In this document: piece by piece, positions 34,636 through 38,741 of the stretch
Layout of the letters: each line of letters opens with the position of its first letter
Position numbering within the stretch: position 1 is the stretch's first letter
Assembly (NCBI GenBank): GCA_001458075.1
Contig: LN899469.1
Span: 744,001-808,000, forward strand
Direction of reading: 5' to 3'
DNA length: 64,000 nt
DNA from: Idiomarinaceae bacterium HL-53
GTDB lineage: Bacteria > Pseudomonadota > Gammaproteobacteria > Enterobacterales > Alteromonadaceae
Notes under the pieces: generated by a model
Told to the model about the DNA's origin: nothing
Databases searched by the model: none
Seen by the model: the letters and a program-made list of their open reading frames with translations, nothing else
Made by a program: the position numbers and the translations under genes

Positions 34636-35886
34636 CTAAGCCTCGCTCGCGAGCGCCGACGGCAACGCAGCTACCAATAGCGTTGCCGTAACTAGCAACC
34701 CACTTGAAACCAACAAGCACGGAATAAGTCCACCCACTTGATAAACCCAGCCCGAGAGCACCGTACCGAGTAAACGTCCAGCAGCATTCGCCATGTAGTA
34801 AAAACCCACATCAAGCGATACTCCGTCGGCCCGTGCTGAGGCAACAATTAAGTAACTGTGTAAAGACGAATTAATGGCAAACAACACACCAAAAACGCCC
34901 AGCCCGATCATCAGAATGGGTCCGATGAATATCGATTCTGTAACGGGAAACTCCCACAGCAGATAGGCAATCAGTGCCGGTGAAAACGCCAACAGGCCGC
35001 CCCAAAGGGTCGCATGTCGCGCTTGTTGAACTTTGCTCGCGTTAGCGTCCCCTGCGTTTACCATAAAGCGAGGTGCAAGCGCCTGCACAAAACCATAGCC
35101 AATAACCCACAGCGCCAGAAAACTGCTCACTTGCCAATGCGGCCATTGGAGCTGACTGGCCAAAAATACCGGAAGTGCAATCACAAACCACACATCACGG
35201 GCGCCAAAAAGAAACAAACGTGCGCCAGAAAGTACGTTAATTGCTCTGCTTTTAGAAAATACGTCGGAAAATTTCGGCTTAAACTTTGCCTTCCCACTCT
35301 CCCCTTTGAGCATAAATAAACTCAACACCCAAACCAAAGCAAGCACAAGCGCCATCGCCAGCACCGCCCCCTGAAAGCCAAGCCAAGAAAGTAATGCACC
35401 CCCAAGAAAGAAACCCACACCCTTTAGCGTATTTTTTGATCCTGTCAGCACCGCAACCCACTTGAAGAGCTTGCCTTGCTCTGTGTCACTCACCAAGGTT
35501 TTGATCGTGCTTTTGGCGCTCATTTTGTTTAAATCTTTGGCAATGCCCGACAGTGCTTGCGCAGCCATCACCCAAACTACCGTGAGCCAAGCCGCTGGCA
35601 CCAGCAGCATTGCAAGCGCAAACACTTGCAATGCCAAACCAATGTTCATAGTTCGGTTTAAACCCCAACGGGCACCAAGCCAGCCACCCACAAGATTCGT
35701 GACCACGCCAAAAAACTCGTAAAACACAAACAACATGGCCACTTCGAGCGCGCTATAACCGAGTTGGTGAAAATGCAGCACTACCAGCATCCGCAACGCA
35801 CCGTCGGTGAGTGTAAATGCCCAGTAATTTCCGGTCACTAGCATATATTGCCGAATGGCTGGCGTAAGCGAAGCGGCGGTATTCAT
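34636..35886 (-). CDS. arsJ: ArsJ-like organoarsenical efflux permease (MFS)
   Basis: The 416-residue protein has about twelve hydrophobic segments in two MFS-like bundles. It starts SLTPAIRQYMLVTGNYWAFTLTDGALRMLVVLHF and contains LNKMSAKSTIKTLV, features typical of ArsJ. ArsJ exports 1-arseno-3-phosphoglycerate made by a partner GAPDH. The ATG at 35886 gives the usual N-terminus, 7 bp after the GAPDH stop; a 24-residue extension would overlap GAPDH. Its place after gapdh and an ArsR protein supports the call, which rests on context plus these family-like stretches. Confidence 0.88.
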   Translation of the reverse strand: MNTAASLTPAIRQYMLVTGNYWAFTLTDGALRMLVVLHFHQLGYSALEVAMLFVFYEFFGVVTNLVGGWLGARWGLNRTMNIGLALQVFALAMLLVPAAWLTVVWVMAAQALSGIAKDLNKMSAKSTIKTLVSDTEQGKLFKWVAVLTGSKNTLKGVGFFLGGALLSWLGFQGAVLAMALVLALVWVLSLFMLKGESGKAKFKPKFSDVFSKSRAINVLSGARLFLFGARDVWFVIALPVFLASQLQWPHWQVSSFLALWVIGYGFVQALAPRFMVNAGDANASKVQQARHATLWGGLLAFSPALIAYLLWEFPVTESIFIGPILMIGLGVFGVLFAINSSLHSYLIVASARADGVSLDVGFYYMANAAGRLLGTVLSGWVYQVGGLIPCLLVSSGLLVTATLLVAALPSALASEA

Positions 35887-35893
35887 CTGAGTG

Positions 35894-36895
35894 TTATCCC
35901 TGCGCCACTTTGCGGGCAAGTTCAACAGCTCGATTGGCATAACCCCATTCGTTGTCATACCACGCGTAAATTTTCACATGCGTGCCGTTAATCACCTTGG
36001 TTGAAAGCGCATCGATGATACTCGAACGGGGATCGGTCCGGTAATCGACCGAAACCAACGGGCGTTCTTCATAGCCTAAAATACCCTGCAACTCTCCTTC
36101 CGCGGCTTCCTTCAGCCATTGATTTACTTCCGTTACCGAGGTTTCACGATTTACCTCAAAGACACAGTCGGTCAGAGAGGCATTCGCTAAAGGAACACGC
36201 ACCGCATGCCCATCTATTTTTCCTTTCAGTTCAGGAAAAATTTCTACAATAGCAGTCGCCGATCCGGTACTGGTTGGAATCAGGCTTTCTCCGCATGCGC
36301 GCGCTCGGCGCAAATCCTTATGGGGAGCGTCTAGAATAGATTGAGTATTCGTAATATCGTGAATTGTTGTAATCGAGCCATGCTTAATTCCTACCTTGTC
36401 CATAAGCACCTTCACTACGGGCGCTAAACAGTTGGTAGTGCACGAAGCCGCAGTTACAATTTGATGTTGCGCGGGATTAAACAAGTGATCGTTCACTCCC
36501 ATCACCACATTCAGCGCACCCGCTTCTTTCACCGGTGAAGAAACAACCACCCGCTTTACGCCCTGCTGCAAATAGGGCTGCAATGCCGCGACGGTTTTGA
36601 ATTTTCCAGAACATTCGAGCACTATGTCGCAACCACTCCAATCGACCTTCTCAAGCTCTTTTTGGGCGCTGAATTTGACTTCTCGCTCTTCAAAATAAAG
36701 GGCATTTTCAGTGGCGGTCATATCGCAATTCCACTTTCCATGCACAGAGTCGAACATGAGTAAATGCGCAAACATCGAAGCCGGCCCCGCAGGATCGTTC
36801 ACTTGTACTATTTCAACTGCAGGGTTTTGCGCAGCAATTCGAAATGCCAGCCGCCCAATTCTTCCTAGGCCGTTTATGCCAAGTTTAATGGCCAT
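35894..36895 (-). CDS. Glyceraldehyde-3-phosphate dehydrogenase of the arsenic operon
   Basis: The 333-residue protein is a phosphorylating GAPDH: the NAD site is [16 protein letters not shown], the active-site Cys is in [14 protein letters not shown], and the C-terminal [15 protein letters not shown] is intact. In operons with arsJ this enzyme (GapArs type) uses arsenate in place of phosphate to form 1-arseno-3-phosphoglycerate, which ArsJ expels. The residues cannot by themselves separate this from a glycolytic role; the neighbours do. It lies 44 bp after the ArsC-ArsR fusion. Confidence 0.92.
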
Positions 36896-36939: not shown

Positions 36940-37740
36940 CTATTCATTATCCAAACTAACGACAGCATCACAGGTACCTCCACCAACACACCCATTAGAC
37001 TCAACTCCCTGTAGTTTGGGTATGAGACTGGGGTTATGGTGCGCGGTCACCTGCAGTGTCTTGCGAACCCAATCGGGTATGGCGGGGTTAATTCGATAAT
37101 AAACCCAACGCTTATCTCTTCTATCAACTAACAACGCATATTCTCGCAATTGCGCTAAATGCCTAGACACTTTGGGTTGCGACATCCCTGTGATCGCAAC
37201 GAAATCGCACACGCAAAGTTCCGCACGTTGAGTTAATGCCAATACCAAAGACAATCGCAGCGGGTCCGCCAACACTTTGAATAAATCCGAAGGAGAATTC
37301 AAAATATGAGCGTGAGAGGTTGGGGTGCTGTGTTGCTTCTCAATGATGAGTAATAGCATACGAATACGCTCACTGAGCTCATTCGCTGTTGTCAAAAAAG
37401 CGTTTGCCTCATTTTTCTCGACCGGGTCCGGAAAGTCCCAAACAATATGGTGGTTGTCCGAGAAACTCTCCCTACATTCGGTACTCGCTTTTTCACAGAG
37501 TGTAATTACATAGTCAAAAGACTTTTGTGAAAATTGCTCCAACGATTTTGACACTAACCCCTCGTTGCTTACACCGAGTTTCGTGAGAGCAAGCAATGCA
37601 CCCTGCGCCACTTCACTTGGGTTTGTGCCGGCACTAAAACAATCAACCGTATGGCGGCCAAGATGGCGCATAATTGCTTCTGCCATAATCGATCGCGCTG
37701 AATTTTCCGTACACACAAAAAGAATCGATACTTTACTCAT
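36940..37740 (-). CDS. Arsenate reductase-ArsR repressor fusion
   Basis: This 266-residue protein joins two arsenic functions. Residues 1-135 are a low-molecular-weight phosphatase-type arsenate reductase: the P-loop CTENSAR (Cys10, Arg16), two more cysteines at 82 and 89 (C-x6-C) and the DFPDP segment match thioredoxin-coupled ArsC such as that of pI258. Residues about 148-235 are an ArsR winged helix with the As(III)-binding ELCVCDF motif and recognition helix SQPKVSRHLAQLR. A Cys-containing tail (NGCVGGGTCD) follows. It heads the operon with gapdh and arsJ. An inverted repeat lies just upstream. The reductase could make the As(III) sensed by the attached repressor (inference). Confidence 0.9.
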   Translation of the reverse strand: MSKVSILFVCTENSARSIMAEAIMRHLGRHTVDCFSAGTNPSEVAQGALLALTKLGVSNEGLVSKSLEQFSQKSFDYVITLCEKASTECRESFSDNHHIVWDFPDPVEKNEANAFLTTANELSERIRMLLLIIEKQHSTPTSHAHILNSPSDLFKVLADPLRLSLVLALTQRAELCVCDFVAITGMSQPKVSRHLAQLREYALLVDRRDKRWVYYRINPAIPDWVRKTLQVTAHHNPSLIPKLQGVESNGCVGGGTCDAVVSLDNE

Positions 37741-37748
37741 GATCTTCT

Positions 37749-37772
37749 CATATATGATTTTTAATATATATG
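37749..37772. promoter_or_regulatory. Candidate ArsR operator
   Basis: CATATAT and ATATATG form a 7-bp inverted repeat separated by 10 bp, 9 bp upstream of the fusion gene, in a very AT-rich intergenic stretch shared with the divergent patatin gene. Size and position fit an ArsR operator. A TATAAT on the plus strand (37783-37788) could serve the patatin gene. Confidence 0.55.
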
Positions 37773-37838
37773 GTAAATCAGATATAATTGACGTACAACA
37801 ATTTCAATGCTTTTCTTATAGAAACAAGGAAGATTCAT

Positions 37839-38741
37839 ATGGCGAACCCTACAGTTCAAACCACGCAAACCCCTGTTGATTCACCTCGCAAGCATACGCT
37901 CGTTATTGAAGGGGGTGCGATGCGTGGTATTTTTGCCGCGGGAGTGCTCGATGCATTTATCGAGAGTCACTTTTATCCTTTCGACGCTGCTATTGGGGTA
38001 TCTGCAGGCTCCACGAATGGCATTGGTTACCTTGCCGGTAACTTTCAACGTAGCTACCAAATTATTACCGATTATGCGCGCCGTGATGAATTTATGAACC
38101 TTCGGCGATATCTCAAGGGCGGACACTTCTGCGACGTGAGTTGGCTTTGGCATAGCTCGCTCGATGAACTACCGCTCGATGTAGAGACATTCCTCAAACG
38201 CAATATCCCGCTCACGGTAGTCACTACTAGTGTACGTACTGGAAAACCTTGCTATTTTGAGGCAACGAAAGAAAACCTGGTCGATCTATTCCCAGCCTCG
38301 TGCGCCATGCCCGTGGTATTTAGAGAGTTCCCCCCAATTAACGACGAGCCAATGACCGACGGTGGCTTAGCGGATTCAATTCCAGTGATTCACGCTTACG
38401 AACAAGGTGCAAAGCAAATTACGGTCGTTCTCTCGCAACCACTCGGATTCAAGAAAGATGTTTCGCGATTTCCAGGCCTTCTCAAACCCCTATTTAAAGA
38501 CCATCCAGAGCTATTCGAAGCAGTTGCTCGCCGTGGTGTGCAGTATAACGACGCATTAGAATTCATCGCTCGCCCGCCGAAAGACTGTGACGTTAACATT
38601 ATTGCACCTCCAGCAAATTTTCCCGTTTCCCGTTTCACGACCGACCTTCCATCACTCAATATGGGTTATCGGCAAGGAGTGAACGCAGGAAATCGCTTTA
38701 TCGCCGAAAGCTTGATCAGGTCGGATGCGACGCACGCATAA
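37839..38741 (+). CDS. Patatin-like phospholipase
   Basis: The 300-residue cytosolic or peripheral lipase shows the patatin catalytic layout: oxyanion loop GGAMRG near residue 25, nucleophile elbow GVSAGS (about 52-57) and the aspartate of the dyad in DGGLAD (about 182). Family members hydrolyse acyl esters of lipids; the substrate here is unknown. The ATG at 37839 follows AAGGAAG with six-base spacing; a TTG further upstream has none. It is divergent from the arsenic operon and may share its regulatory region. A DAACS symporter follows after 48 bp. Confidence 0.88.
   Translation: MANPTVQTTQTPVDSPRKHTLVIEGGAMRGIFAAGVLDAFIESHFYPFDAAIGVSAGSTNGIGYLAGNFQRSYQIITDYARRDEFMNLRRYLKGGHFCDVSWLWHSSLDELPLDVETFLKRNIPLTVVTTSVRTGKPCYFEATKENLVDLFPASCAMPVVFREFPPINDEPMTDGGLADSIPVIHAYEQGAKQITVVLSQPLGFKKDVSRFPGLLKPLFKDHPELFEAVARRGVQYNDALEFIARPPKDCDVNIIAPPANFPVSRFTTDLPSLNMGYRQGVNAGNRFIAESLIRSDATHA

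What the first reader, a model, noticed from the sequence alone, without database searches (positions are those of the whole stretch)
36940..37740. Arsenate reductase fused to an ArsR repressor, controlling a GAPDH-ArsJ operon
One protein contains a complete thioredoxin-type ArsC (Cys10, Arg16, Cys82, Cys89 at the positions of pI258 ArsC) and an ArsR domain with the ELCVC As(III) motif. The operon it heads disposes of arsenate as 1-arseno-3-phosphoglycerate and has no ArsB or Acr3 pump nearby. The fused reductase may therefore serve mainly to turn arsenate into the arsenite its own repressor domain senses, making a self-contained arsenate sensor. Known: ArsJ/GAPDH pathway, ArsC and ArsR families. 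Inference: the sensing role.
Basis: partly seen in the sequence, partly recalled or inferred. Interest (0 to 1): 0.78.

Follow-up and report, generated by a model that had tools for sequence, protein, structure and literature searches.

The report
Arsenate reductase fused to arsenic repressor
A bacterium carries one protein that joins an arsenate-reducing enzyme to an arsenic-responsive gene switch at the head of an arsenate-disposal operon, and relatives suggest that the enzyme part may help the cell sense arsenate.

Summary
Window 36940-37740 (-) is one uninterrupted 266-aa ORF with an LMW-PTP-type ArsC domain first and an ArsR domain second, heading a GAPDH-ArsJ operon. The one-contig 2.74-Mb genome has no hit to the Acr3, ArsB or aquaglyceroporin models. 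The fusion is common: 38 of 147 genomes of its family (own included) carry it, almost always beside ArsJ (36 of 39 fused ArsC places, against 4 of 65 unfused). I found ArsR-first proteins heading gapdh-arsJ in a separate ArsC lineage, so two fusions in opposite order converge on one operon. New here: the reversed order, the pumpless setting, and a dissociation: 62 of 62 ArsC-first fusions that lost one or both ArsR cysteines keep the reductase residues, and 35 of 52 Vibrionaceae-like fusions have no cysteine in the repressor half. Some of these repressors may read the reductase itself. The window protein keeps both sites, so sensing by in-cis reduction remains its best, untested reading. A Grx-type ArsC homologue in the genome weakens "self-contained".

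The parts
36940..37740 (-). ArsC-ArsR fusion gene, 266 aa
37351..37725 (-). ArsC (LMWPc) domain, residues 6-130; C10, R16, C82, C89 and D105 present
   Evidence: C10/R16/C82/C89 intact in 63 of 66 ArsC-first fusions
37078..37290 (-). ArsR/SmtB winged-helix domain, residues 151-221
   Evidence: NF033788, 84.2 bits; AF2 pLDDT block means above 90 over residues 151-240
37207..37221 (-). ELCVC motif (C176, C178), the putative As(III) pair of the ArsR domain
   Evidence: both Cys kept in 38 of 39 family fusions and 54 of 66 ArsC-first fusions overall
37750..37785 (-). operator-like AT-rich inverted-repeat block just upstream of the fusion start, resembling blocks before the fusion genes of the seven other members of its tree group
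   Evidence: regulation inferred, not shown
35894..36895 (-). ArsJ-associated GAPDH (expected to make 1-arseno-3-phosphoglycerate)
   Evidence: NF033735 557.7 bits over cut-off 450
34636..35958 (-). ArsJ MFS exporter; the longest ORF starts at 35958, a start near 35886 is more likely because the family match begins at residue 36
   Evidence: NF033734 599.1 bits over cut-off 400

Best explanation
The protein is the autorepressor of its own three-gene operon (fusion-GAPDH-ArsJ). Without arsenic the ArsR half sits on the AT-rich block before the gene. When arsenate enters, the attached ArsC half reduces some of it to arsenite, the arsenite binds the CVC pair of the ArsR half (same chain, dimer partner or neighbour), the repressor lets go, and GAPDH plus ArsJ then dispose of the bulk as arsenate or 1-arseno-3-phosphoglycerate. 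The reductase is thus used mainly to turn arsenate into a signal, because the disposal chemistry never makes arsenite and the genome shows no recognised way to export it. Shown: domains, residues, operon layout, absence of matches to the pump models, conservation. Inferred: autorepression, reduction activity, arsenite as the inducer.
For: Intact two-domain ORF and operon. No Acr3, ArsB or aquaglyceroporin match in the one-contig genome. In the family, 36 of 39 fused ArsC places lie within 8 kb of ArsJ against 4 of 65 others (Fisher p 6e-20, not corrected for kinship). C10/R16/C82/C89 intact in 10 of 11 fusion genomes without Acr3; the window and its two nearest relatives without Acr3 keep them over path lengths of 1.24 and 1.45 changes per column. 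ArsR-first fusions, outside the ArsC-first clade, also head gapdh-arsJ. The Grx-type ArsC homologue of this genome lies beside a gene that reads like bepA (my reading); in V. cholerae an E. coli-type ArsC homologue (VC2165) was found inactive (PMC9601151, passages), and the stray arsC of Halomonas GFAJ-1 had no effect (PMC5930303, passages). Operator-like block.
Against: No activity or induction data. 37 of 37 standalone ArsRs recognised in ArsJ loci keep CVC with no fused reductase (3 of these loci have a separate ArsC). 62 of 62 distinct ArsC-first fusions that lost one or both CVC cysteines still keep the reductase residues, so arsenite binding at CVC is not what preserves the reductase there. 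The AF2 model gives no fixed domain arrangement (pTM 0.58, residues 141-143 under pLDDT 50), so channelling is not supported by structure. A TIGR00014 ArsC homologue over its cut-off exists in the genome. Other arsenite exits (unrecognised exporters, ArsP, ArsK, ArsM) were not searched.
Confidence: 0.6

Rival explanations
1. The reductase domain is itself the receptor: arsenate bound or being turned over at Cys10, or the Cys82-Cys89 disulfide that follows, changes the repressor half directly, with no need for arsenite at CVC.
For: 62 of 62 distinct ArsC-first fusions that lack one or both CVC cysteines have an intact C10/R16/C82/C89 set. 35 of 52 Vibrionaceae-like fusions have no Cys at all in the repressor part, and 15 of these have ArsJ in the fetched locus. 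3 of 12 ArsR-first fusions of family f55 (L204, L207, L213) lost most or all of the CC..C cysteines yet keep the ArsC cysteines, and all 3 head gapdh-arsJ. Linker length is exactly 26 in all 52 Vibrionaceae-like fusions against 26-67 in the 66-row set.
Against: The window protein and 54 of 66 fusions keep both CVC cysteines. Two fusions with a wholly broken reductase (L081, L235) and one with C82 lost (L077) keep CVC and the repressor half, so the repressor can persist without catalysis. V. cholerae ArsR, a standalone protein with an altered motif, controls an As(V)-inducible operon without a fused reductase (PMC9601151), so Vibrionaceae repressors may sense something else. 41 of 47 of these genomes searched have acr3, so the reductase may simply serve detoxification there. 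The linker of 26 is shared by 9 CVC-keeping fusions too and may reflect kinship. 17 of the 52 keep other cysteines in the repressor half.
Confidence: 0.18
2. Ordinary detoxifying reductase that happens to be fused to its regulator; arsenite leaves by an exporter that the models miss, or the operon lost Acr3 recently and the reductase is a leftover.
For: 27 of 38 fusion genomes of the family have Acr3; Acr3 has come and gone in these loci (42 of 66 with it in the fetched locus; at least 10 changes forced by starred branches). One SBF-family transporter of unknown substrate is in this genome.
Against: Reductase residues kept over long branches in the group of the window and two relatives without Acr3 (support 90, not starred). 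ArsC genes outside the fusion are rare in ArsJ loci (4 of 65), which plain detoxification does not predict.
Confidence: 0.17
3. The LMW-PTP-type domain acts as a phosphatase or arsenatase on 1-arseno-3-phosphoglycerate, like VarH of V. cholerae.
For: Same broad chemistry; no VarH-like gene was found near the window fusion.
Against: A VarH-like phosphatase occurs in 18 fusion loci of the first set (22 of its 91 loci), so the roles look separate; the C82/C89 redox pair is kept in 63 of 66 fusions and is not needed by a phosphatase.
Confidence: 0.05

Closest known systems
ArsRC fusion of Paracoccus (Chen, Galvan, Nadar, Yoshinaga, Rosen 2022, Environ. Microbiol. 24:1977; not held; known through a passage and the reference list of PMC9479143, and recall of its abstract)
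   Same: Repressor and arsenate reductase in one chain, proposed to raise arsenate sensing; operon with gapdh and arsJ (recalled)
   Different: There ArsR is N-terminal and ArsC C-terminal (recalled); here the order is reversed. 9 of 12 ArsR-first proteins of family f55 that I fetched carry CC..C near residues 90-99 and all 12 have ArsC cysteines at 10/86/94; here ELCVC and 10/82/89.
ArsR-ArsC fusions of L. ferriphilum, Microbacterium and Sinorhizobium (PMC6205960, passages) and of Actinobacteria clusters C4 and C7 (PMC6514093, passages)
   Same: Fusion of the same two families
   Different: The passages give no tested function; domain order and operon were not compared here
GAPDH-ArsJ pathway of P. 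aeruginosa DK2 (as told in PMC6205960 and PMC5930303), and var operon of V. cholerae (PMC9601151: abstract, passages, sections 9 and 12)
   Same: GAPDH and ArsJ deal with arsenate; ArsR-controlled in V. cholerae
   Different: V. cholerae ArsR is a separate protein with an altered motif; the var operon has VarH and no reductase
Unfused arsC-arsR neighbours in Pseudomonas, Stutzerimonas and Salinicola (L127, L135, L141, L142, L144)
   Same: Same gene order, arsC then arsR; their ArsC lies in the same 80-row clade as all 66 ArsC-first fusions
   Different: Two genes

Membership tests
LMW-PTP-type arsenate reductase (pI258 / Synechocystis ArsC class) | P-loop CX5R with Cys10 and Arg16, plus the redox pair Cys82 and Cys89 | tested here: met
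   sequence relatives in PDB include 1lju, 1ljl, 2l19
Thioredoxin-coupled pI258 subclass | Score over the curated model TIGR02691 | tested here: not met
   54 bits against cut-off 174.3; TIGR02689 (glutaredoxin type) also below its cut-off (59.5 of 157.6)
ArsR/SmtB repressors with the ELCVC As(III) site | Winged-helix domain with ELCVC | tested here: met
ArsR/SmtB repressors | Binds operator DNA and releases it with As(III) | not testable with these tools
   operator-like block only
GAPDH-ArsJ arsenate resistance operon | ArsJ-associated GAPDH next to ArsJ | tested here: met
   both over curated cut-offs
ArsRC (Chen 2022) sensor fusion | ArsR N-terminal, ArsC C-terminal (recalled) | tested here: not met
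   ArsC at 6-130, ArsR at 151-221; a different ArsC lineage from the ArsR-first proteins fetched. The Paracoccus protein itself was not in the tree.
ArsRC (Chen 2022) sensor fusion | Arsenate induces through in-cis reduction | not testable with these tools
   needs bench work
ars operon with reductase plus arsenite pump | ArsB or Acr3 in operon or genome | tested here: not met

The most novel reading that the evidence does not exclude
The arsenate reductase domain is the receptor. In this family of fusions the repressor reads the catalytic state of the attached reductase (arsenate-loaded or disulfide), so an enzyme has become the ligand-binding domain of a transcription factor. The classical arsenite cysteines are then dispensable, and were lost wholly or in part in every member read of a Photobacterium-like genus and of a Vibrio-like one, in some Marinobacter and in some ArsR-first fusions of another class, while the reductase residues stayed intact.
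Probability: 0.2. Interest if true: 0.82.

Novelty: new variant of a known kind. Interest (0 to 1): 0.56.

Why it matters
ArsR repressors classically see arsenite, yet GAPDH-ArsJ operons handle arsenate; how they are switched on is an open question, raised explicitly for V. cholerae (PMC9601151). Two fusions in opposite order, from separate ArsC lineages and both found at the head of gapdh-arsJ operons, suggest that tying a reductase to the repressor is one answer. The relatives with an intact reductase and a cysteine-free repressor half make a clean test between 'product sensed' and 'enzyme sensed' possible with existing natural proteins. Arsenate-specific biosensors are a practical use.

Tried and rejected
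Idea that standalone ArsRs of reductase-less ArsJ loci would have lost CVC: rejected in this family, 37 of 37 recognised ones keep it (two further weak ArsR-like ORFs, in L092 and L093, were not looked at). Idea that reductase decay tracks loss of the pump: rejected, the two wholly dead reductases (L081, L235) sit in loci with Acr3. VarH-like role of the ArsC domain: disfavoured. Channelling through a fixed interface: no support from AF2. Search of the defence library: only Csa3 winged-helix matches, irrelevant. Promoter scan: 4 sites against 3.9 expected, no excess. Structure-library search: not accepted.

Rows dropped and gaps: L123 and L138 were left out of the trees as duplicates of L090 and L121. 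Of 63 matching Vibrionaceae-like genomes, 47 were read, 5 more (other strand), two (G486, G385) had been read as L233 and L234, and 9 were not fetched. The script cut sequences wrongly where the P-loop lies close to the start; its cysteine columns were discarded and redone. L137 and L143 are the same contigs as two of the 52 and are counted once (12 + 52 - 2 = 62). In 'unfused' means not among the 39 fusions read; 20 of the 65 were fetched for the tree. ArsR-first row L221 was labelled by length and position only and is doubtful. 'No Acr3' means no match over the model's cut-off; some of these genomes have weak SBF-type matches. In the table 'operon' means Acr3 anywhere in the fetched locus.

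Full report
WHAT IS THERE. The ORF at 36940-37740 (-) encodes 266 aa in one frame. Pfam places LMWPc at 6-130 and HTH_5 at 159-200. C10, R16, C82, C89 and ELCVC are all present. GAPDH (35894-36895) and ArsJ (34636-35958) follow on the same strand and pass the curated ArsJ-pathway models. AlphaFold2 on a 16-row alignment gives two well-folded domains (mean pLDDT 86.7), a weak linker and a disordered tail, with pTM 0.58, so no reliable mutual placement.

GENOME CONTEXT. The window lies in a single contig of 2,740,021 bases rated 100% complete. It has no match to Acr3 TIGR00832, none to ArsB PF02040, none to aquaglyceroporins PF00230, and one SBF protein at 905392 that the Acr3 model does not match. 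The fusion is its only LMWPc match. It does have a Grx-type ArsC homologue at 2332056-2332391, next to a gene that reads like bepA (M48 peptidase; my reading). That neighbourhood is that of E. coli yfgD (recalled). In V. cholerae an E. coli-type ArsC homologue was inactive (PMC9601151, passages), and in Halomonas GFAJ-1 a stray arsC had no effect (PMC5930303, passages). So it is a weak, not an excluded, second source of arsenite. All 147 family genomes have a TIGR00014 match (144 over the cut-off).

RELATIVES IN THE FAMILY. The fusion was searched in 147 genomes, own included, and ArsJ, Acr3 and ArsB in the same set (88, 89 and 3 genomes over the cut-off). ArsJ loci were fetched and mapped. 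There are 39 fusions in 38 genomes; 11 of the 38 have no Acr3 over the cut-off and no ArsB. Common layouts are fusion-Acr3-(small ORF, often a VarH-like phosphatase)-GAPDH-ArsJ, fusion-GAPDH-ArsJ and ArsR-GAPDH-ArsJ. Reductase residues are intact in 37 of 39 and both CVC cysteines in 38 of 39. Exceptions: L081 (reductase dead, Acr3 present), L077 (C82 to E, no Acr3), L104 (CVC to CVN, no Acr3).

FUSION GOES WITH ArsJ. Of 104 ArsC places in the family, 39 are the fusions and 65 are not. ArsJ lies within 8 kb for 36 of 39 fused and 4 of 65 other places. Two of the three fused exceptions have their ArsJ on another contig of the same draft genome (G008, G138). The Fisher p of 6e-20 ignores kinship; the tree shows that the fused ArsC rows belong to one lineage, so this is one or few events kept together, not 39 independent ones.

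AGAINST NECESSITY. 46 of 88 ArsJ genomes have neither Acr3 nor ArsB over the cut-off. Eleven of these carry the fusion (ten in the ArsJ locus) and one (G042) a separate ArsC in the ArsJ locus; 34 have neither. All 37 standalone ArsRs recognised in the ArsJ loci keep CVC. How those are induced is unknown. In some ArsJ loci no ArsR was recognised at all.

TWO FUSIONS, OPPOSITE ORDER. A phylum-wide search with the ArsC domain (398 genomes) and fetched loci gave ArsR-first fusions of about 280 aa in a family f55 of another class (unnamed; presumed alphaproteobacterial). Ten proteins were scanned with Pfam: nine show an HTH domain before LMWPc, one (L231) shows LMWPc only. Nine ArsR-first genes are followed by GAPDH and ArsJ (L204, L205, L207-L213; L211 with Acr3 between). 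In the ArsC tree (164 rows, quick method) all 66 ArsC-first fusions fall in one starred group of 80 rows with 14 unfused rows; none of the 14 rows labelled ArsR-first lies inside it (one of the 14, L221, is doubtful). So the two orders most likely arose separately. The published ArsRC of Paracoccus has the ArsR-first order (recalled; PMC9479143 says only that ArsR is translationally fused to ArsC) and was not in the tree.

DISSOCIATION OF THE TWO SITES. In 66 ArsC-first fusions, C10/R16/C82/C89 are intact in 63 and both CVC cysteines in 54; the 12 that lost one or both CVC cysteines all keep the reductase residues, and the 3 with a damaged reductase all keep CVC. In a Vibrionaceae-like family (f4; 296 genomes searched, 63 matching) 52 fusions were read (47, 5): 52 of 52 keep the reductase residues, 0 of 52 keep both CVC cysteines, and 35 of 52 have no cysteine in the part aligned after window residue 131. 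Of these 35, 15 have ArsJ in the fetched locus, 11 do not, and 9 were read from short loci in which this was not looked at. The ArsJ ones are mostly fusion-phosphatase-GAPDH-ArsJ (maps). Named members are Photobacterium alginatilyticum (L137) and Vibrio harveyi (L143; no ArsJ in its locus). The DNA-reading segment is kept in L137 and L143 (SQPKVSRHLA). Among 12 ArsR-first fusions of f55 (L203-L213 and L218), 9 keep CC..C and 3 (L204, L207, L213) do not, yet all 12 keep the ArsC cysteines. Loss of arsenite-type cysteines with retention of the reductase thus happened in both fusion types. Acr3 is present in 41 of the 47 Vibrionaceae-like genomes searched for it, so a detoxifying role of the reductase is open there.

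EVOLUTION OF THE WINDOW COPY. The path lengths to them are 1.24 and 1.45 changes per column, and the four reductase residues and CVC are unchanged. The organism's own genus is not named by the tools.

CONTROL DNA. An AT-rich block directly before the fusion gene aligns with those of L079 and L075, and similar blocks precede L076, L080, L083, L090 and L104. This fits autoregulation but is not proof; no promoter excess was found.

LITERATURE. Searches. Seen as passages: PMC6205960, PMC6514093, PMC9479143, PMC5930303, PMC10138600, PMC6947025. PMC9601151: abstract, passages, sections 9 and 12. Chen et al. 2022 itself was not seen. In these searches I found no paper on an ArsC-first fusion heading gapdh-arsJ, nor on fusions with a cysteine-free repressor half; PMC6514093 uses both 'ArsC-ArsR' and 'ArsR-ArsC' for actinobacterial clusters, without a tested function in the passages seen. 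The library holds open-licence papers only.

VERDICT. The finding is real and the mechanism plausible, but its core idea is published for what I recall as the mirror-image protein. The additional value lies in the reversed, separately evolved form, its tie to ArsJ loci in this family, the genome without recognised arsenite exporters, and the natural series of relatives that separates the arsenite site from the reductase.

Noticed in passing
L261-L330 (Vibrionaceae-like family f4), e.g. L137:5992-6780: ArsC-ArsR fusions with intact reductase residues but no cysteine in the repressor half (35 of 52 read), 15 of them with ArsJ in the fetched locus, mostly as fusion-phosphatase-GAPDH-ArsJ.
   Followed up: partly
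L233:5334-6992: A fusion without cysteine in its repressor half sits directly downstream of a pstB-like phosphate transporter gene on the same strand, with pstA- and pstC-like genes beyond (my reading); a possible link between the sensor and the arsenate uptake route.
   Followed up: no
L081:6311-7069 and L235:5380 onward: Fusions whose reductase half has lost its catalytic residues while the ArsR half and CVC are kept; both loci also hold Acr3.
   Followed up: partly
L032-L121, 22 of 91 loci: VarH-like phosphatase genes in ArsJ loci of this family, although PMC9601151 calls VarH rather exclusive to the Vibrionaceae.
   Followed up: partly
L300, L304, L305, L308, L309: Standalone ArsRs next to gapdh in Vibrio-like genomes also lack the CVC pair (CVN or VSVN); altered motifs are reported for V. 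cholerae ArsR.
   Followed up: no
all 52 Vibrionaceae-like fusions: The linker between conserved R125 and D159 is exactly 26 residues in every one, against 26-67 in the 66-row set; pairwise identity among 47 of them is 0.33-0.99.
   Followed up: partly
L204, L207, L213: ArsR-first fusions at gapdh-arsJ that lost most or all of the CC..C cysteines of the repressor half but keep the reductase cysteines.
   Followed up: partly
window 37836-38741 (+): Patatin-like phospholipase with DUF6363, divergent from the fusion and sharing its upstream region; may be affected by the same operator.
   Followed up: no
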